NCBI GenBank assembly: GCA_903832205.1
Contig: CAILAH010000037.1
Location: forward strand, 1-33,705
Length of the DNA stretch: 33,705 bases
Reading direction: 5' to 3'
From: an uncultured Microcaldota archaeon
GTDB taxonomy: Archaea > Micrarchaeota > Micrarchaeia > CAILAH01
Of this stretch, positions 17,884-32,083 are shown piece after piece (the stretch's first letter is position 1; every line of letters starts with the position of its first letter). The notes beneath the pieces were generated by a model. The model had not been told where the DNA came from, did not search any database, and saw nothing but the letters and a program-made list of their open reading frames with translations. The translations under genes were made by a program, and so were the position numbers.

Positions 17884-18543
17884 ATGACTATTAAAAATAC
17901 TTCATACTACGGCATTTACGATGCGTGGGGAAAGATGGCCACGCTTAACCTTGACCCGGGCGCAAAAATCCACGGGGAGCAGCTGGTTAGGGAGGACGGA
18001 AAGGAGTACAGGGTGTGGGACCCGAGAAGGAGCAAGCTGGGCGCGGCAGTTATGAAAGACCTGCAGACCTGGCCGTTTGAAAAAGGCACGCGCGTGCTTT
18101 ACCTGGGCGCGGCGGCGGGCGTTACGCCGAGCTTTATTTCGGATATTGTCGGCGAGGAGGGAAGGGTTTATGCGGTGGAATTCTCGCCCGAGTGCATAAA
18201 GGAGCTGGTTTTGAGGTGCGAGAACAGGAAAAATATCTGGCCCATACTTGCCGATGCGCGGCTGCCCCAAAAGTACGATTATGTGGGAGAGGTGGACGTG
18301 CTGTTTGAGGATGTGGCGCAGCCGGACCAGGACCGCATTCTTGTCATTAATGCAAGATACCTGAAGAAGGGCGGGATTGCGATGATTGCGGTTAAATCGC
18401 AGTCCATTGATGTGACGCTCAAGCCGCATGAAGTTTACAAGAAAGTCATTGAGGGACTGAGCGATACGTTTGAGATTCTGGAGAAGATTGAGCTTGACCC
18501 CTATGAGAAGCACCACCTATTTATTGTGTGCAGGAAAAAATAG
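17884..18543 (+). CDS. flpA: Fibrillarin-like rRNA/tRNA 2'-O-methyltransferase
   Basis: This is the catalytic subunit of the archaeal C/D-box ribonucleoprotein, which transfers methyl from S-adenosylmethionine to ribose 2'-OH at guide-selected sites. The 219-residue length is standard. The N-terminal domain has GIYDAWGKMATLNLDPG, HGEQLVREDGKEYRVWDPRRSKLGAAV; the Rossmann domain has RVLYLGAAAGVTPSFISDIV (SAM loop), VYAVEFSPEC, ADARLP and VDVLFEDVAQPDQ; and KSQSIDV is near the end. All motifs are intact. Nop5 and L7Ae, its partners, are not in the window. A 46-base stretch (18043-18088) encoding AAVMKDLQTWPFEKG recurs in diverged form at 28381-28426. Confidence 0.95.
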   Translation: MTIKNTSYYGIYDAWGKMATLNLDPGAKIHGEQLVREDGKEYRVWDPRRSKLGAAVMKDLQTWPFEKGTRVLYLGAAAGVTPSFISDIVGEEGRVYAVEFSPECIKELVLRCENRKNIWPILADARLPQKYDYVGEVDVLFEDVAQPDQDRILVINARYLKKGGIAMIAVKSQSIDVTLKPHEVYKKVIEGLSDTFEILEKIELDPYEKHHLFIVCRKK

Positions 18544-19951: not shown

Positions 19952-22900
19952 TTATTTTTCCCGCTTCAGCTGCTTCACCTGTTTCGATATGTCTTCCTGT
20001 GCCTTGGAATTGTTTTCGCGCATCTTGAGGAGGATGAATGAGATAGCTATCACCGCGATGCCTGCAATGATGAGCGTGTAATCGTTTGGCGAGGATTGGG
20101 GCGTGCCAGACAGGCTTGCAAGCGCTATAACTGCAGAGTCTTTTGCGCTTGAGTAGCTGCCCTCCTTATACATTGATTCGATATCGTAGAGCTTGTTCGT
20201 AAGTGCGTCCTTGAGGCGCTGGTCGGAAAGGGCAGAGAGCGCGTTCCTCAGGTCACCGATTGCGGAATTGGCGGCCGTGCGCTCGGAAGCGACGTAGGCG
20301 TTGATGCTCGAAATGGTTGAGTTCATTTTTTCGATTGCGGAGGCATACTCGCCGGGGGTTGTTGGATTGAGGGAAAGGAGCGATTGCGAGTAGGAGACCA
20401 TCTCCTGCGGGCATTTTGTAGAGCAGGCCTTTGTGAGCTGTGCCGCGGACGACTTGAGCGCTGTGAGCTGTGCCTTGTATTTTTCCTTAAGCCCGGATTC
20501 CCAGTCGCCCGAATCTTTCTCTGCGAGTTTGGTTTTGCCGTCAAGCGATGAGATAATTACATAGGCGCTGTCGAATTGCGCGAAGAGCGCCGCGTCCGGC
20601 GTAATTGCGCCGGTTGCGTTGTTTAGGGTGCTTTCCACCTGTGCGATTTCTGCAGGAAGGGAAGTTGCATATCCCTTGTCAATCAGGTAGAGCCATCTCT
20701 GCTTGAGCGAGTTGAGCTTTGTGCCTATTTCGGATGCCTGCGAGTAGGCGAGCGCGTTTAGGCCGAGCAGCTCTTCGTTTGCCTTCCGCAGCTGAACGAG
20801 CTTCTTGTCGTTTGTCGATTCAGACTGGGATGCGGCGTAGTAGGATTTTATTTTTGAGAGTGATTTCTGCACGTCGCTGTTCCTGACCGTTGAGAGGCCC
20901 GCGATTGCGGTGGAGATTTCAGCGTCCAGCCGCAACACTTCGCTTAACGACATGGCCGATTGTGTTGCCAGCTGGTTTGCATCGGCAAGCTTTGCCTTGG
21001 CATCATCGACCGCCTTGAGCGCATCCTCATAGTTGCCTGAATCAAGAGCGCCCTGTGCCCTGGAAAGCGAGGCACTCACATCGCCATTTGAGTAGGAGGT
21101 GCTGTCATTTGCAACCGCATCAATCTCGTTTTGTATTGCATCTTTGTTTAGCGGTGCGCTTGCATGGATATCAAGCGTGCACCTTGATTTTGCAAGGAGC
21201 GCCCTGAGGGTTACGGTTATGCGCGTGGCGGTTGGGAGCAGGGTGTGGTCCTGCGCGGAAATGGCGCAATCCGGCGAGGAAATGGTCAGTGAAGATGGCG
21301 AGAGCACCGGGAGGTCGTAAGAGAGCTGTGCGTTTTCAATGTCGAACGGCACCGCGCTTGCCACATTAAGCCTTATGCTCGTGGATGTGCCGGAGCGGGA
21401 GGCGTCGCTTGCGGAGACGATTATCGGGTCGTCAATCAAATAGACTGACGTGAGCCTGTGGCTGCCGGGCGCGATCTCCCTGCTTATTTTTGCATCATAA
21501 TTGAAGCTGCCCGCATATTCGCCGTCATAATAGAGCGAGTAGGCGTAATTGTAATAGGAAGGGATTTGCAGAGAGGGCGCGCCCGTGGATGCAATCTGCC
21601 TCTCAACTGTAACCTTGAGCCGGGTTGGTGAGGCCAGCACCGCATCCTCTTTTACGGAAATTGTGCGCACAAGTGTCTGCGAGTCCTCAAACGTTATCGA
21701 GTAGAGATGGCCGGGCGTGTATTTGGGAATCATTAGGCTGAGCTTTCCCGAGCTGTAGCTGTACATGGACCAGTCCGGGCCCAATGTGGGATTTGATTTG
21801 GAAACGTCATATGCAAATGGGACCGTGATGGTTACTGGGCCGTTGTAATTCAAGTCAAGAACACCGTAGGTGGCAAAGTAAACCTGGCGGGTTGAAGGCG
21901 AGTCTAGGAGCATTGTGGAATTCCCATAGGCTGCGCTCACCCTGGCATTAAGCTCAAGCGATTCCCGGATTAGCTCTTTGGACTTGAAGCTTATCTGGAG
22001 CTCAAGCCCGGAGATGAACCCTGCAATCTCGCTGTAATGACCGAGCGATGCGTGGCTGTCAAACTTGCCGTCCTTGCCTAGATAGGAATTGAGCTGTGCG
22101 TATTCTTTTAGGGGCTTCCCGTCAAGTGATTCGAAATATTCCGCAAGGGGCGCGGCCTGAGCGTAGCGCAGGGAAAGGGAGCCGTATTGTGCCGCTCCGC
22201 GCGCAAATATCTGCTCTGAAAGCAGGGTGCATGAAAGCGAGATGTTTACCATCTGCTCCGGGGGCAGGTTGCCACCCTTTAGCGCAATCGATTTCTCATT
22301 GTAGTAGCTTTCTTCGTATGAAACGTCTATGGAATCGTCCCTGGCGCGGTCGATGACCGATTTGAGATAGGTGAGCGAGTTCGTTGCGGAATCTTTGGCG
22401 TTCGCGCGGAACACTGCGCCGGGTGAAAGGTAGGAGCGGGCGAGCTTGAGGTCGTTGTATGCGAGCTTAAGGTTTGCAAGGCGCTCGCTTGCGGATTTGC
22501 CCTTGTCCAGGTTAGGCTGTGCCTTCACTATGAGCAACTGTGCTGCGGCGAGCTGCCTCTCCTCCGCAGGGGTTTTTGGGATGAATGCGGAGGCTTCGGA
22601 AGTGGCGAACGCGTATTCATCCTGCGTGAGGGCAGATGCGGTTTCCAGGATGAATATTCCCGTGCGCTCAGCTTCCCTGAGGCTGAAGGACGCGCTGTCA
22701 AGCTTTGCGGATGCGGTGTAATAGTGGGTGGTGGATTCGGTGACATAGCCCTGCGCTTTTGCATTGAATGCCGAGTCCCCCTGCAAAATCTCATAGGACG
22801 ATTCGGTGAGCGATGCGCCCGCGGCTGCAATGTGCGAGGAGGGCGAATCGAGGGTTTGAAGCGTTGCAATGTTGAAATAGACCACGTCCGCATCGGTTAT

Positions 22901-23818
22901 TTGATTATATTCCGAGGTTATGCGCGAGTATTCGGAAGAGACGGTGCTTGATTGGGATTCCGCTGTGGAACGGGCAGTGGTGCGCTCGCTGAGCAGGCCG
23001 GCGCTGATTTTTTTCTCAACTGAATAGGCAAAGAGGAGCTTTGAAAATGCGGAGCTGTCGCCATCGAGCAGGTAGCGCACCTGGCTGGAGGATTCGGAGA
23101 TGAAGCGGGAATATGCCGAGCCGCTGGTGGCCGTTAGGAGGGCATCGGATTTTATCTGCTCCTCGCGGGACTTGAGCGCCGCGCCGTCGATTGAGCTTAA
23201 TGTGGATTCGAGCTGTGCGATATCGTTCGCATACTGGCCGGAGTAGCTGCCGCTTGTGGCGCCCATGTGGATAAGGTCTTCACGCCCCGAAGTGACTTTT
23301 GAAAGGAGGCCGTTGTATGCCTTCTCGCTTTCCTCAACCGAATCTGCGGCAGAAGTGTAATGCTCTGCGCAAAGTGAGACTATATGCATGCCGTAGGAAG
23401 TGGTCTGCATTATGCTGCTGCCGGAATAGGACAGGAAATCGTCAATGTGCAGCATAAACCAGGAGGAGATGGCCTTGGCGGACATGCTTGCCGTTTCGTT
23501 GAACCAGTCCTTTATTGAGTTTAGAATCAGGTATTTGGACTCGCCGACTTTTGTGAAATCCTCATCTGCGTTTTTTGCGCTGTTTATCTCGTTTGTGAGC
23601 TGTGACGCGGTGGATGAGTCAACTGCGTAGAGGTAGCTGGTGTCGATGTCGGTGTTTTCCGGGCTGTTTTGCATTATGCTGATGATGTAATCCGGCACAG
23701 CGTAGTGGTTGAACTCCCAGGGGCGCTCGATTGTGGGGTCAAGATAGGCCGGGGTGAATGCAAAGGAAAACTGGACAAAGAGCGTTGCAAGAAGGATGAG
23801 GATTAGAGGCGTTCGCAT
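19952..23818 (-). CDS. Giant secreted coiled-coil/helical surface protein, 1288 aa
   Basis: I do not recognise a family. The protein has a cleavable-looking signal peptide (about 1-20, ending FSFA), a very long Ala/Ser/Glu-rich helical ectodomain with heptad-like stretches (about 180-660 and 905-1230), and a beta-rich central part (about 660-900). The central part includes a PEGA-like segment (about 730-795, SLYYDGEYAGSFNYDAKISREIAPGSHRLTSVYL). Near the C-terminus is one membrane helix (about 1248-1266) followed by a basic cytoplasmic tail (KMRENNSK...KQLKREK). The topology puts almost everything outside the cell. It may be a stalk or adhesin spanning the envelope. A TATA-like CTATTATAAGG about 27 bases upstream of 23818 suits leaderless expression. 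Confidence 0.78.
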   Translation of the reverse strand: MRTPLILILLATLFVQFSFAFTPAYLDPTIERPWEFNHYAVPDYIISIMQNSPENTDIDTSYLYAVDSSTASQLTNEINSAKNADEDFTKVGESKYLILNSIKDWFNETASMSAKAISSWFMLHIDDFLSYSGSSIMQTTSYGMHIVSLCAEHYTSAADSVEESEKAYNGLLSKVTSGREDLIHMGATSGSYSGQYANDIAQLESTLSSIDGAALKSREEQIKSDALLTATSGSAYSRFISESSSQVRYLLDGDSSAFSKLLFAYSVEKKISAGLLSERTTARSTAESQSSTVSSEYSRITSEYNQITDADVVYFNIATLQTLDSPSSHIAAAGASLTESSYEILQGDSAFNAKAQGYVTESTTHYYTASAKLDSASFSLREAERTGIFILETASALTQDEYAFATSEASAFIPKTPAEERQLAAAQLLIVKAQPNLDKGKSASERLANLKLAYNDLKLARSYLSPGAVFRANAKDSATNSLTYLKSVIDRARDDSIDVSYEESYYNEKSIALKGGNLPPEQMVNISLSCTLLSEQIFARGAAQYGSLSLRYAQAAPLAEYFESLDGKPLKEYAQLNSYLGKDGKFDSHASLGHYSEIAGFISGLELQISFKSKELIRESLELNARVSAAYGNSTMLLDSPSTRQVYFATYGVLDLNYNGPVTITVPFAYDVSKSNPTLGPDWSMYSYSSGKLSLMIPKYTPGHLYSITFEDSQTLVRTISVKEDAVLASPTRLKVTVERQIASTGAPSLQIPSYYNYAYSLYYDGEYAGSFNYDAKISREIAPGSHRLTSVYLIDDPIIVSASDASRSGTSTSIRLNVASAVPFDIENAQLSYDLPVLSPSSLTISSPDCAISAQDHTLLPTATRITVTLRALLAKSRCTLDIHASAPLNKDAIQNEIDAVANDSTSYSNGDVSASLSRAQGALDSGNYEDALKAVDDAKAKLADANQLATQSAMSLSEVLRLDAEISTAIAGLSTVRNSDVQKSLSKIKSYYAASQSESTNDKKLVQLRKANEELLGLNALAYSQASEIGTKLNSLKQRWLYLIDKGYATSLPAEIAQVESTLNNATGAITPDAALFAQFDSAYVIISSLDGKTKLAEKDSGDWESGLKEKYKAQLTALKSSAAQLTKACSTKCPQEMVSYSQSLLSLNPTTPGEYASAIEKMNSTISSINAYVASERTAANSAIGDLRNALSALSDQRLKDALTNKLYDIESMYKEGSYSSAKDSAVIALASLSGTPQSSPNDYTLIIAGIAVIAISFILLKMRENNSKAQEDISKQVKQLKREK

Positions 23819-27328: not shown

Positions 27329-28360
27329 ATGGAAGCCGGCAGGAAGTTCACGCTTATAACAAGGAATCTTCAGGAAGTTATTGGTGAGGATGAGCTTAAG
27401 GAAATTCTCAGTAAAAGAGACCTTAAGGTTTATCTTGGAACTGCCACCACGGGCAGGCCGCACATTGGGTATTTTGTTCCTGCGATGAAGGTTGCCGATT
27501 TCCTAGAGGCGGGAAGTGAGGTTACCATACTGCTTGCGGATTTGCACGCATACCTGGACAACATGAAGGCGCCCTGGGATTTGCTTGCGAAGAGGACGGA
27601 GTATTATGAGCATCTGATGAAAGAGCTGCTCAGGAGTGTTGGCGTTGACATAAAGAAGCTGAAATTTGTGAAGGGAACGGATATGCAGCTTAGCAAGAAG
27701 TACATGCTTGATGTTTACAGATTGTCATCAATCGCGGGCGTGAATGATGCGAAAAGGGCGGGAGCGGAAGTGGTGAAGCAGGTAGATAATCCTAAATTGG
27801 GAGGGCTCCTGTATCCGCTGCTGCAGGCGCTGGATGAGGAATATCTGGATGTGGATGCCCAGTTCGGCGGCGTTGACCAGAGGAAGATTTTTGTGTTTGC
27901 GGGCGAGTTTATGCCCAAGCTAGGCTACAAGAAAAGGGTACATTTGATGAACCCGATGATACCTGGATTGTCGGGCGGAAAGATGAGCTCATCTGAGCCG
28001 GAGTCAAAGATTGACCTGCTGGATAGCGAGGAAGAGATTAGGAAGAAATTTGCAAAGGCGTTCTGCCCCGCAGGACAGGTTGAGGAGAACGGCGTGCTTG
28101 CGTTCGCAAAGGCAGTGATGTTCCCGCTGCTTGAGAGGAAACAGAGGGCGCTTGTTATTGAGAGGCCCGAGAAATTCGGCGGAAACCTGGAGTTTGCCAA
28201 TTACGAAGAGCTTGAGGTGATGTATAAAGACGGGAAACTTCACCCGATGGACCTTAAGAGCGCCGTTGCAAAAGAGCTTGCAATTGTGCTCAAGCCGGTG
28301 AGGGAGCATTTCGAAACGCCGGAGATGAAGAAGCTGATTAGGGAAGCGTATCCTGAGTGA
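27329..28360 (+). CDS. tyrS: Tyrosyl-tRNA synthetase
   Basis: This class I synthetase charges tRNA-Tyr. The 343-residue protein is of the compact archaeal/eukaryotic type. The HIGH motif appears as HIGY at 45-48 and the KMSKS motif as KMSSS at 218-222. Typical Tyr-pocket blocks are present: [25 protein letters not shown] and [23 protein letters not shown]. There is no bacterial S4 domain, as expected for archaea. It starts 3 bases after the cdc6 stop without a clear Shine-Dalgarno site, so translation is probably coupled. It is complete and intact. Confidence 0.95.
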
Positions 28361-29172: not shown

Positions 29173-30228
29173 ATGAGGCTTAAGCGTTATCCTGATAAGG
29201 GCCATAGGGTCTGTGAGCGCGATGATGAGAGGAGGCTTTACGGGAAGTTTTCGCCATTTTTCATAGATTCCTATAAGATCTCACAGTCGAAGTCACTGAG
29301 AAGGCTTGAGAGCAAGACGCAGGTTTATACGGTACCTGATAATCCGCACATCAGGACCAGGCTTACGCATACAAATGAGGTTGTGTGGGTTTCAAGGATT
29401 ATTGCCGTGCAGCTAGGGCTCAATGAGCACCTGTGTGAGGCGATTGCGCTTGGCCACGATGTCGGCCACACGCCCTATGGGCACCCTGGCGAGACGCTGC
29501 TTGAAAATATTAGGCCGGGGTTCAAGCACGAGAAGAATAGTGCTGTTGTGCTTGAACTTGTGGAGAGGCAGGGCAAGGGCGTAAACATCTGCAAGGAAAC
29601 GATGGGTGGAATACTGTACCATTCACGCGGAGCGGGGGAGCTGATAGTGAGCAAGAATGTGCCGCAGGAATGGAACGTTGTGATGTTTGCAGACAAGCTC
29701 GCATATGTGTTTTCAGATATTAACGACTCTGAAAGGCTGGGGTACCTGAAAAGGCTTCCAAAGGAGGCTGTGTGGTTGGGAAATAACCAGAGGGAACGGC
29801 TTGACAGGTGCATACAGGCGCTGCTGAATGAAAGCAGGAGAAAGGGGTATGTCTCGTTCTCTGATTCGGAGGAGGCTGAGAAATTCTCAGTGCTGAAGGA
29901 CTTCATGTATAGGAATGTCTACAAGAAGATTGACGGCAGGCTCAAGACGGTAACGCTGGAGGTAATATACCAGATCATAGAGAAGACGTTCCCGGAATTT
30001 GACCCCGTGCTTCTCACCAGCCTGCTTACGGATTCTGAGGTTACGACCCTCTCAAAAAAGCTTCTTGACAATCCGCTTAACAAGCGCAAGGTTTTCCTGA
30101 ACCACAGCATTACGGGGCTTGCAGATATCCTGGAAGGGCTCGAGGGAATACCTAAAATTGATTATGCGATGGTTGATGCGCAGTGGATCATTGGAAGAAA
30201 GCTAAGGGCTAATTCTCAGGGGAATTAA
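29173..30228 (+). CDS. dGTP triphosphohydrolase-like HD protein
   Basis: The 351-residue protein belongs to the dGTPase branch of the HD superfamily, whose members cut dNTPs to deoxynucleoside and triphosphate. The N-terminal block SQSKSLRRLESKTQVY and HIRTRLTHTNEV (His66) are diagnostic, followed by GHDVGHTPYGHPGE (His95-Asp96, His99, His104) and FADKLAYVFSDI (Asp174). The C-terminal helical region is shorter than in enterobacterial Dgt, as in many archaeal and Gram-positive homologues. The ATG at 29173 has a TATA-like TTATTAAAATC centred about 26 bases upstream, so it likely has its own leaderless promoter. Its 3' end overlaps the convergent sigma-like gene by 20 bases. Confidence 0.9.
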   Translation: MRLKRYPDKGHRVCERDDERRLYGKFSPFFIDSYKISQSKSLRRLESKTQVYTVPDNPHIRTRLTHTNEVVWVSRIIAVQLGLNEHLCEAIALGHDVGHTPYGHPGETLLENIRPGFKHEKNSAVVLELVERQGKGVNICKETMGGILYHSRGAGELIVSKNVPQEWNVVMFADKLAYVFSDINDSERLGYLKRLPKEAVWLGNNQRERLDRCIQALLNESRRKGYVSFSDSEEAEKFSVLKDFMYRNVYKKIDGRLKTVTLEVIYQIIEKTFPEFDPVLLTSLLTDSEVTTLSKKLLDNPLNKRKVFLNHSITGLADILEGLEGIPKIDYAMVDAQWIIGRKLRANSQGN

Positions 30229-31048
30229 ACGTTCCCAGATTTTTTCTTATGAATTTATTGTGCCTGCTTTTTGGCAGGTCTTCTACGTTTGCAACTTTCA
30301 TCCTTACGAGCGCTTTGCCTATCTTAAGGCAGGCCTCTTGCAATACCTGGCAGGCGCGCTCCCTGCTGTAGCCCATTATTTCCCCAATCTTGCCTGCCGT
30401 GCAGTGCCAGTAAAAGTACATTATGATGGGCTCCTTAAAGCGCTGTGGGAGCTGGCTGACCGCTTCCAGGACCTTTTCCTCCAGGATTGTGCTCGCTGCG
30501 GAGTCCTCGGGGCTTTTGAATGTGGTGGAGGCGATTCTGTCGTGCACTGTGTTTTTGCTTTCTCCCGCAAAGAGCGGGTCGTCAAGGGCGACTGGCACAA
30601 GTGAGTGGCGTATCTCTTCAATCTCATTTTCGGTCAGCTTCTTTCGGCCTTTTTCTGGCGCGTAGCCAAATGCCTGGGCAACCTTGTGGGGCGAGACGTA
30701 AACGTGCCTGCTGGAGAGGCTGCCCTCGCTTATGTGGCTGTTGAAAACCCACCTGCATTTTGAATATGTCCAGGTGGAAAGCGCCATGCCCCGCTTGCCA
30801 TCATAGGAAGCGAGCGCCTGCCATATGCCTATCCTGGCCACCTGCTCAATGTCATCCGGAATGATGCCCATCCTGGTCACTAGGCTGCCGTAATGCTTGA
30901 AAAGCATCCCCCTTACCTGGGGCACCTCTTCCGCAATGTACCTGTCTATGATTGTTTCTGCCTTGGTTCGCGCTTCAAATGATTTCGATTTTCTCTGCCT
31001 TATTGCGCAAAGCACTTCCTTTGTGCGGTCATCCACCTGCTTATTCAT
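30209..31048 (-). CDS. Sigma-70-family-like protein (regions 2 and 4)
   Basis: The 279-residue protein has the two core domains of a bacterial sigma factor in order. Residues about 40-120 match region 2: VPQVRGMLFKHYGSLVTRMG, the acidic DDIEQVARIGIWQALASYD (core-binding segment), KRGMALSTWTYSKCRWVFNSHI (the melting and -10 recognition segment), then a region-3-like start. Residues about 188-248 match region 4: LEEKVLEAVSQLPQRFKEPIIMYFY and the helix-turn-helix TAGKIGEIMGYSRERACQVLQEACLKI. Archaeal RNA polymerase uses TBP and TFB, so its target here is unknown; it may be a repurposed DNA-binding protein. An A/T-rich TATA-like box lies about 42 bases upstream. It overlaps the convergent dGTPase-like gene. 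Nothing nearby looks viral. Confidence 0.82.
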   Translation of the reverse strand: MNKQVDDRTKEVLCAIRQRKSKSFEARTKAETIIDRYIAEEVPQVRGMLFKHYGSLVTRMGIIPDDIEQVARIGIWQALASYDGKRGMALSTWTYSKCRWVFNSHISEGSLSSRHVYVSPHKVAQAFGYAPEKGRKKLTENEIEEIRHSLVPVALDDPLFAGESKNTVHDRIASTTFKSPEDSAASTILEEKVLEAVSQLPQRFKEPIIMYFYWHCTAGKIGEIMGYSRERACQVLQEACLKIGKALVRMKVANVEDLPKSRHNKFIRKNLGTFNSPEN

Positions 31049-31136
31049 AAATATCGCTCGGGAGTGAGATAGGAAAGGCTAGGGTTAAATAGTTTGTGAT
31101 AATTCCCCAAAGCTGCGCTGGGAGGGGAGGAGGAGG

Positions 31137-31172: not shown

Positions 31173-31577
31173 CTACTTCATCATCTGGCCTATGAAGCCG
31201 CCGATTATGCCCAGGACGAAGCCGATAACGACACCGACGATGATGCCGATTACAGATACGCCAAGGGTCACGATAAATGCGGCTGCATTGGGGCCAACGG
31301 TCAGCATTGCAAGCGCAAGGCCAAGGACGAAGCCGACAATGCCGGAGACGAAGGCAACGAGTGCGCCCGTAACGCCCGCATCAACGAGACCGAGCTTTGC
31401 CTTTGCCGCCATGAATCCTGCGTAGAGGATTACAAGGAAGCCGAGAAGGCCGATTACCATGCTCAAGAGTGCTCCAAACACCGGTATAAGCAGGGTTGCT
31501 GCGAGCGAAATGATGCTCAAAACAACCATTACCAGTATGGGCATCTGTGCTACTTTCATTATTTTACCAAAATCCAT
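31173..31577 (-). CDS. Hydrophobic membrane protein, 134 aa (paralogue of next gene)
   Basis: The family is not recognised. The protein has about four membrane helices with many Gly, Ala and Val and few charges. It begins MDFGKIMKVAQMPILV and contains YAGFMAAKAKLGLVDAGVTGALVAFVSGI between helices 2 and 3; it ends VIGFVLGIIGGFIGQMMK. The neighbour at 31676-32083 has the same start, middle and end, so the pair is a tandem duplication. GGGTGTTAATGT precedes the ATG. The Gly-rich last segment resembles a glycine-zipper helix that packs or oligomerises in the membrane. It has no soluble domain. Confidence 0.75.
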   Translation of the reverse strand: MDFGKIMKVAQMPILVMVVLSIISLAATLLIPVFGALLSMVIGLLGFLVILYAGFMAAKAKLGLVDAGVTGALVAFVSGIVGFVLGLALAMLTVGPNAAAFIVTLGVSVIGIIVGVVIGFVLGIIGGFIGQMMK

Positions 31578-31639: not shown

Positions 31640-31676
31640 AGAAAAAAGAAAGGAAAAAGAGGGAAACGGTTTCCCT
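31640..31676 (-). terminator. Hairpin plus T-tract terminator
   Basis: On the minus strand AGGGAAA-CCG-TTTCCCT (31660-31676) forms a 7-bp hairpin that begins at the stop codon of the second membrane paralogue and is followed by a T-rich tract (31640-31659). This looks like an intrinsic terminator, less common in archaea than a plain T-run. Confidence 0.5.
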
Positions 31677-32083
31677 TAGAATTTCTGGCCAATGAGGCCA
31701 CCTATTGCGCCGAGGACGAAACCAATCACTGTCGCTATTGCGATGCCGATTACGCCCGCCACCAGGAAAATTACTATTCCAAGGGCCAGGACGGCTGCAT
31801 TTGCTCCAATGCCTGTTGAGGCCAGGGCTGCTGTGACAACAAGGTTGATGATGCCTGCAACGATTGCCACGATGGCTCCCGTAATGCCTGCATCAACGGT
31901 GCTCATTTTAGCCTTTGCTGCCATGTATCCTGCCCAAAGGAGGATTATCCAGCCAATCAGGCCGATAACCGCACCCACAACCAAAAGGCTTGGGACAAGG
32001 CTCAATAGGCTCGCAATTGTGTCAAGAATAACCAGTGCCACAATCGGAATCATTCCCACTTTAATTATCTTGCCAAAGTCCAT
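31676..32083 (-). CDS. Hydrophobic membrane protein, 135 aa (tandem paralogue)
   Basis: This is a paralogue of the gene at 31173-31577. Shared blocks are MDFGKI-KV at the start, WAGYMAAKAKMSTVDAGITGAIVAIVAGI in the middle and VIGFVLGAIGGLIGQKF at the end; the hydrophobic helices between them have drifted. It is predicted to have four membrane helices. GGGTGTAATT lies before the ATG at 32083, the same leader type as its sister. A terminator hairpin after this copy separates the two, so they are probably expressed independently. Function is unknown. Confidence 0.75.
   Translation of the reverse strand: MDFGKIIKVGMIPIVALVILDTIASLLSLVPSLLVVGAVIGLIGWIILLWAGYMAAKAKMSTVDAGITGAIVAIVAGIINLVVTAALASTGIGANAAVLALGIVIFLVAGVIGIAIATVIGFVLGAIGGLIGQKF

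What the first reader, a model, noticed from the sequence alone, without database searches (positions are those of the whole stretch)
30209..31048. A sigma-70-like protein on an archaeal chromosome
The protein has region-2-like (DDIEQVARIGIWQAL, KRGMALSTWTYSKCRWVF) and region-4-like (helix-turn-helix near residues 217-245) segments in the right order and spacing. Archaeal polymerase starts with TBP/TFB, and TATA boxes are evident throughout this window. The gene sits among host genes and has a TATA-like box, with no phage genes near it. It could be a sigma relic reused as a DNA-binding regulator, a factor for a horizontally acquired promoter class, or a protein acting on a bacterial host or partner.
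Basis: partly seen in the sequence, partly recalled or inferred. Interest (0 to 1): 0.8.

Follow-up and report, generated by a model that had tools for sequence, protein, structure and literature searches.

The report
Bacterial-type sigma protein in an archaeon
A tiny archaeon (phylum Micrarchaeota) carries a real relative of the bacterial sigma factors that tell RNA polymerase where to start, and so do about one in eight of the related genomes; this is an extra case of a little-noticed, experimentally untouched phenomenon that makes the question 'can archaeal RNA polymerase use a sigma factor?' testable.

Summary
ORF 30209-31048(-) encodes 279 aa with Sigma70_r2 and Sigma70_r4, both over Pfam's cut-offs and in order, plus a region-3.2-like linker. 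The top PDB matches of its AlphaFold2 model are sigma factors (sigma2 and sigma4 each about 2.3 A).

The contig is archaeal: fibrillarin, Orc1/Cdc6 and archaeal TyrRS lie on one side, a Micrarchaeota-type gene on the other. The gene has host codon usage and a TATA box. Relatives' records name the phylum: Candidatus Micrarchaeota.

It has no detected orthologue in the other four genomes of its family, so it looks like a recent or patchy acquisition, weakly FliA/WhiG-like. It is not alone: 35 of 301 Micrarchaeota genomes carry sigma-70 region 2 over cut-off. Some have tandem arrays of up to seven genes beside archaeal mevalonate-pathway genes, at a conserved locus. Fifteen sigma-bearing genomes checked each hold one RNAP large-subunit gene; the window's own is archaeal.

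Sigma-70 proteins in DPANN archaea were reported in 2021 (PMC8204110), so the kind is known; the function is not. Best guess: a DNA-binding factor that still docks on RNAP, here the host's, at the clamp coiled coil. Main rival: a DNA-only regulator.

Side finding: many Micrarchaeota encode half-size, single-repeat TBPs.

The parts
30209..31048 (-). Gene for a 279-aa sigma-70-family protein (regions 2, 3.2-like linker, 4)
30719..31036 (-). sigma2-like domain, residues 5-110, pLDDT mostly above 85; aligns to SigA sigma2 at 2.4 A over 101 residues
30731..30856 (-). regions 2.2-2.4, residues 65-106: keeps D403, Q406, G411, A415, G424, S428, T429, R436 (E. coli sigma70 numbering); has lost E407 (V), W433 (S) and W434 (K)
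30503..30592 (-). region-3.2 (sigma-finger)-like linker, residues 153-182, VALDDPLFAGESKNTVHDRIASTTFKSPED; low model confidence, identified by motif only
30299..30511 (-). sigma4-like helix-turn-helix domain, residues 180-250, pLDDT about 93; 2.2 A over 80 residues to SigL sigma4
31084..31093 (-). archaeal TATA-like box ACTATTTAAC, 36-45 nt upstream of the start codon
29173..30228 (+). dGTP triphosphohydrolase-like HD protein, convergent, overlapping the sigma gene's 3' end by 20 bp; close homologue also not found in the same family of genomes; context, possible co-acquired neighbour
31173..31577 (-). small membrane protein with homologues in other Micrarchaeota (paralogue at 31676-32083): shows that the right flank belongs to the same phylum
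17884..18543 (+). fibrillarin: archaeal marker on the same contig (context)
26264..27325 (+). Orc1/Cdc6 replication initiator: archaeal marker (context)
27329..28360 (+). archaeal-type tyrosyl-tRNA synthetase, over the NF006330 cut-off (context)

Best explanation
It is a sigma-70-family protein of bacterial (weakly FliA/WhiG-like) ancestry that now lives on a Micrarchaeota chromosome and is transcribed from the host's own TATA promoter (identity and location shown, about 0.95). Most likely it works as a small regulator that binds DNA through its region-4 helix-turn-helix and still docks, through its region-2.2 face, on the clamp coiled coil of the only RNA polymerase known in the cell, the archaeal one. 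There it would bias initiation at a limited set of promoters alongside, or in competition with, TFB, TFE and Spt4/5 (mechanism inferred, about 0.45).
For: Identity: both sigma domains over Pfam cut-offs, TIGR02937 over cut-off, model with top PDB matches all sigma chains. Location: archaeal markers on the contig, host codon usage, TATA box, right flank with Micrarchaeota homologues. Docking: if only the HTH were used, region 2 and the linker should decay. Instead the window protein keeps D403, Q406, G411, A415, G424, ST428-429, R436 and the LDxP...SPE linker motif, and across 49 Micrarchaeota sigma-like proteins D403 is kept in 43, F427 in 39, T429 in 32, Q406 in 31. One orthologous pair elsewhere in the phylum shows dN/dS about 0.23, so genes of this kind are functional. 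Partner: 15 sigma-bearing genomes each hold one A'/beta' locus; the window's own is an archaeal A' subunit whose clamp coiled coil aligns with that of E. coli beta'. The clamp coiled coil is the conserved docking site of sigma70 in bacteria and of TFB/TFE and Spt4/5 in archaea (PMC3223566).
Against: No binding or transcription data exist. At the A' coiled coil, the residues aligned with E. coli beta' R275, E295 and A302 (named from memory as sigma-binding positions) are I, L and H. The bacterial flap-tip helix that holds region 4 is described as a bacterial extension (PMC8131849). The window protein has lost E407 and the W433/W434 dyad, though FliA also lacks the dyad. No orthologue was found in the four family members (two of them under 65% complete), so selection on this very gene cannot be measured.
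Confidence: 0.45

Rival explanations
1. DNA-only regulator: a former sigma factor reused as an ordinary helix-turn-helix repressor or activator, with region 2 kept only as a structural or dimerisation domain and no contact with RNA polymerase.
For: Weak matches to the sigma70-ECF model, many of them covering only the C-terminal region-4 HTH, occur in 208 of 301 genomes of the class, so sigma4-type HTHs are common regulators here. The promoter-melting W433/W434 dyad is lost in the window protein and in most of its Micrarchaeota kin. The archaeal A' residues facing sigma differ from those of E. coli.
Against: Region 2.2 residues and the region-3.2 motif are retained, which a DNA-only role does not explain; the spacing and order of regions 2, 3.2 and 4 are those of a sigma factor.
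Confidence: 0.32
2. A recent acquisition with no working role, on its way to being lost.
For: No detected orthologue in the same genus or family; very long branch in the tree (1.83 changes per site); a neighbouring dGTPase-like gene is equally isolated.
Against: Intact 279-codon frame, host codon usage, own TATA box, and constraint on comparable genes in other lineages.
Confidence: 0.14
3. A factor that acts on a bacterial partner, or a relic of a virus or plasmid that carried its own sigma factor.
For: Phage sigma factors are common (PHROG 351 match), and Micrarchaeota are small-genomed, often host-dependent archaea (PMC12892359 abstract).
Against: No relative found in 2.9 million viral contigs (close relatives only) or 50,697 phage records; no phage-diagnostic neighbours; no export signal seen in the sequence; an archaeal promoter drives it.
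Confidence: 0.06
4. Contamination or a chimeric contig: the gene belongs to a bacterium.
For: The genome is a metagenome-assembled bin and the gene lies 2.7 kb from the contig's end; some sigma-like hits in other bins (for example ECF-type L003-L005 and the 3.3-kb contig L007) could be contaminants.
Against: Archaeal genes on the left and a Micrarchaeota gene 125 bp away on the right, same GC and codon usage, archaeal promoter; mis-binning was also ruled out by others for DPANN sigma genes (PMC8204110).
Confidence: 0.03

Closest known systems
Sigma-70 proteins of DPANN archaea (family fam00359, PMC8204110, 2021)
   Same: Bacterial-type sigma-70 proteins encoded on DPANN chromosomes next to an ordinary TBP/TFB machinery; mis-binning excluded by those authors; mechanism unknown.
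   Different: Reported as most prevalent in Woesearchaeota; this is a Micrarchaeota case. Whether it falls in fam00359 could not be tested. Tandem arrays, synteny, promoter boxes and residue-level conservation are described here.
Bacterial sigma-28 (FliA/WhiG) family, group 3 sigma-70
   Same: Best subfamily match (E=7e-14), best PDB hits, nearest bacterial branch in the tree (support 83); similar length; FliA likewise lacks the W433/W434 dyad.
   Different: Far below the curated cut-off (52 vs 190 bits), about 21% identity, no flagellar genes near it, archaeal host without a bacterial RNAP.
TFB, the archaeal initiation factor held to be homologous to sigma (PMC8131849)
   Same: Helix-turn-helix DNA contacts and use of the RNAP clamp region.
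   Different: No TFIIB match in Pfam up to E=1; the genome has two separate genuine TFB genes.
Region-4-only HTH proteins (e.g. DUF134) common in archaea
   Same: Related HTH.
   Different: They lack region 2; DUF134 scores only 14.1 bits against a cut-off of 27.

Membership tests
Sigma-70 family | Region 2 domain (PF04542) over the curated cut-off | tested here: met
   25.6 bits, cut-off 24; also in the whole-genome scan, 26.5 bits
Sigma-70 family | Region 4 domain (PF04545) over the curated cut-off, C-terminal to region 2 | tested here: met
   31.5 bits, cut-off 24.1, residues 197-243
Sigma-70 family | Superfamily model TIGR02937 over the cut-off | tested here: met
   47.6 bits vs 42.9
Sigma-70 family | sigma2 and sigma4 folds | tested here: met
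   AlphaFold2 pLDDT above 85 over most of both domains; sigma2 2.4 A/101 residues, sigma4 2.2 A/80 residues. The input alignment consisted of sigma factors, so this is not fully independent
Sigma-70 family | Region 3.2 (sigma finger) between the two domains | tested here: inconclusive
   Motif LDxP...D.I...SPE present; model confidence low there
Sigma-70 family | Binds RNA polymerase core and directs promoter-specific initiation | not testable with these tools
   Needs biochemistry
Group 1 (primary) sigma factors | -10-reading W433/W434 dyad | tested here: not met
   S and K at these positions
FliA/WhiG subfamily | TIGR02479 over its cut-off (189.6 bits) | tested here: not met
   52.1 bits
DPANN sigma-70 family fam00359 (PMC8204110) | Sequence membership in that cluster | not testable with these tools
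TFB/TFIIB | Cyclin-fold repeats (PF00382) | tested here: not met
   No match up to E=1
Archaeal chromosomal gene (not a contaminant) | Flanked on both sides by archaeal genes, with host codon usage | tested here: met

The most novel reading that the evidence does not exclude
Micrarchaeota run a mixed initiation system: several lineages, this one included, use genuine sigma factors on their single archaeal RNA polymerase to read a separate class of promoters, beside TBP/TFB. In some genomes this has expanded into arrays of up to seven diverged sigma paralogues.
Probability: 0.17. Interest if true: 0.92.

Novelty: new member of a known kind. Interest (0 to 1): 0.55.

Why it matters
TFB versus sigma is listed as one of the defining differences between Archaea and Bacteria (PMC8131849). 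A sigma-70 protein kept on archaeal chromosomes, with its RNAP-facing region 2.2 largely conserved, gives a natural test of whether archaeal RNA polymerase can work with a sigma factor. The syntenic arrays give a system in which retention, duplication and constraint can already be seen in sequence. If docking fails, it is still a clean example of an initiation factor turned into a regulator.

Tried and rejected
Close-relative scans with the protein: none in 2.9 million viral contigs, the phage collection or the GTDB 220 contigs (the chosen 8-mers were not the conserved ones, so only very close kin would show). An alignment of ten Micrarchaeota sigmas was too diverse for a pattern scan. The primary-like sigma of G049 also found no viral relative.

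I considered that sigma might replace a missing TBP, because no TBP was found in the window's own genome. It was dropped: the bin is 82% complete and 276 of 301 genomes, including all four family members, have TBP. I looked for a second, bacterial-type RNAP in sigma-bearing genomes; each of 15 has a single large-subunit locus, though only the window's own was read in full.

The tree of 49 archaeal and 29 bacterial/phage sigmas does not resolve one origin. The window protein joins FliA-type sequences with support 83 on a very long branch, and long branches meet, so I do not rely on it. The archaeal set in that tree includes possible contaminants.

Full report
Observation. The ORF at 30209-31048 on the minus strand encodes 279 aa. 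Pfam finds Sigma70_r2 (residues 42-96) and Sigma70_r4 (residues 197-243), both above the curated cut-offs. The sigma-70 superfamily model TIGR02937 is also above its cut-off, and the best-scoring subfamily is FliA/WhiG, although well below that model's own cut-off. PHROGs and PDB sequence searches agree.

Structure. An AlphaFold2 model built with 25 viral or bacterial sigma sequences as alignment has mean pLDDT 77.8, with most of residues 5-110 and 180-250 above 85. The top Foldseek hits in the PDB are sigma chains of RNA polymerase complexes. VIA-align gives 2.4 A over 101 residues for sigma2 against SigA and 2.2 A over 80 residues for sigma4 against SigL. Because the alignment was made of sigma factors, this confirms consistency rather than giving independent proof. 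The relative placement of the two domains (pTM 0.47) is not reliable.

Is it archaeal? The window is a complete 33.7-kb contig of a 1.11-Mb bin. It carries fibrillarin, Orc1/Cdc6, an archaeal-type tyrosyl-tRNA synthetase, KaiC-like and Roadblock proteins. To the right of the sigma gene, the small membrane protein 31173-31577 has homologues in five other Micrarchaeota genera or genomes. GC and synonymous codon usage of the sigma gene equal those of the contig (z = -0.1). An ACTATTTAAC box lies 36-45 nt before the ATG. Sigma-70-like promoter sites are below chance in the region. The bin has two TFB genes and one RNAP A' subunit. The class and the phylum hold the same 301 genomes here.

Distribution. 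The window protein has no detectable orthologue in the other four genomes of its family or anywhere in the class; the only two further hits are weak (E about 1e-5, about 30% identity). The convergent dGTPase-like neighbour is equally isolated. Yet region 2 of sigma-70 is over the cut-off in 35 of 301 Micrarchaeota genomes, with 28 genera having some match, and in 10 of the 96 good-quality genomes there is a match; TIGR02937 is over its cut-off in 38. Several proteins have regions 2, 3 and 4 (L008, L009, L012, L014), and some have long N-terminal extensions.

Arrays and synteny. In G043, G093, G094 and G096 sigma-like genes stand in tandem (seven, three, two and two copies) beside the two subunits of an aconitase-X-type enzyme that I read as phosphomevalonate dehydratase, and in G096 within what looks like the archaeal mevalonate gene cluster (these neighbour names are my reading of the sequences, not HMM-confirmed). 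A second locus, next to an APC-type transporter, is shared by G093 and G094, with the sigmas 61-62% identical; G088 has a sigma gene in a comparable setting. This is vertical inheritance on archaeal chromosomes, not contamination. The G093/G094 pair has dN 0.26 and dS 1.15, ratio about 0.23; the array copies evolve faster (dN about 0.6-0.7). Several of these genes carry BRE/TATA-like boxes; two tandem copies in G043 share CCCCCATTTATAAACATTTT.

Residues. On an alignment of 49 Micrarchaeota and 29 bacterial/phage sigmas, the window protein keeps D403, Q406, G411, A415, G424, S428, T429 and R436 (E. coli numbering), and R584, E585, R586 and Q589 in region 4. It has V at 407 and S/K at 433/434. 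In the archaeal set E407 is often replaced by I, V or L (21 of 49), while 27 of 29 bacterial ones have E. In the host A' subunit the position aligned with beta' R275 is isoleucine. A hydrophobic re-tuning of this contact would fit, but the R275-E407 pairing is from memory and was not tested.

Mechanism. Shown: a sigma-type protein with a DNA-binding HTH, on an archaeal chromosome, in a genome with archaeal A' and TFB genes and no second RNAP large subunit found. Inferred: it contacts the clamp coiled coil, which is the common docking site of sigma70, TFB/TFE and Spt4/5 (PMC3223566). The main obstacle is the bacterial flap-tip helix, described as a bacterial extension that holds region 4 (PMC8131849). 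I therefore favour a regulator that docks weakly or partially over a full replacement of TFB, and put this at 0.45 against 0.32 for a DNA-only regulator.

Comparison with the literature. Castelle and colleagues (PMC8204110) already reported sigma-70 genes in DPANN archaea, most often in Woesearchaeota, excluded mis-binning, found no anti-sigma factors and left the mechanism open. A 2025 study of gene transfer in Micrarchaeota mentions neither sigma nor TBP in its main text (PMC12892359). So the window is a new, orphan member of a known kind. The Micrarchaeota arrays and syntenic loci were not found described in the papers I could search; that search was limited to open-licence papers.

Limits. 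The genome is 82% complete, so its lack of TBP means little. Some of the sigma-like hits in other bins, especially ECF-type ones on short contigs, may be contaminants and were not individually cleared.

Noticed in passing
G001:C44:32726-32968, G002:C14:15312-15554, G003:C4:1037-1279, G004:C11:3765-4004 (loci L106-L109); also L110-L118 and many of L119-L198: Half-size TATA-binding proteins: many Micrarchaeota, including all four other genomes of the window's family, encode a TBP with a single repeat in a frame of about 98-120 aa with a stop codon shortly upstream, highly similar across genera (IENIVAS...EYEPEQFPG...), while other families have normal two-repeat TBPs of about 200 aa. Of the 80 best named loci, 47 have one motif (46 in frames of 150 aa or less) and 33 have two. 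It would have to work as a dimer, like the long-assumed ancestor of TBP. No report found in the searchable papers.
   Followed up: partly
G027:C60:6358-6603 and C62:704-943, 1973-2215 (L116, L114); G019:C1 (probably Fermentimicrarchaeum limneticum CP058998): Several separate half-size TBP genes in one genome (three in G027 and three TBP matches in the near-complete G019), which might allow hetero-dimers.
   Followed up: partly
G043:C13:21850-29140 (L077:4853-12137); L072:33-3991; L066:189-3738; L047:8228-10831: Tandem arrays of two to seven diverged sigma-like genes beside apparent mevalonate-pathway genes at a conserved locus in Micrarchaeota.
   Followed up: partly
L066:189-2285, L028, L010, L026: Sigma-like proteins with long N-terminal repeat arrays (up to 698 aa) that look like homing-endonuclease-associated repeats; only one weak Pfam hint (HNH_repeat, E=0.022 in L026).
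   Followed up: no
window:29173-30228: dGTP triphosphohydrolase-like HD protein (209 bits to NF002327, below cut-off; PADLOC dGTPase E=4e-34), a typically bacterial enzyme with anti-phage relatives, found only as weak matches in the relatives searched.
   Followed up: partly
window:11983-15990 and 19952-23818: Two very large minus-strand ORFs (1335 and 1288 aa) without any Pfam match at E<=1e-4.
   Followed up: no
window:4753-10151: Copper-handling-type cluster: heavy-metal P-type ATPase, DsbA-like thioredoxin, HMA/cupredoxin protein, MarR-type regulator and ferredoxin-thioredoxin reductase beta chain.
   Followed up: no
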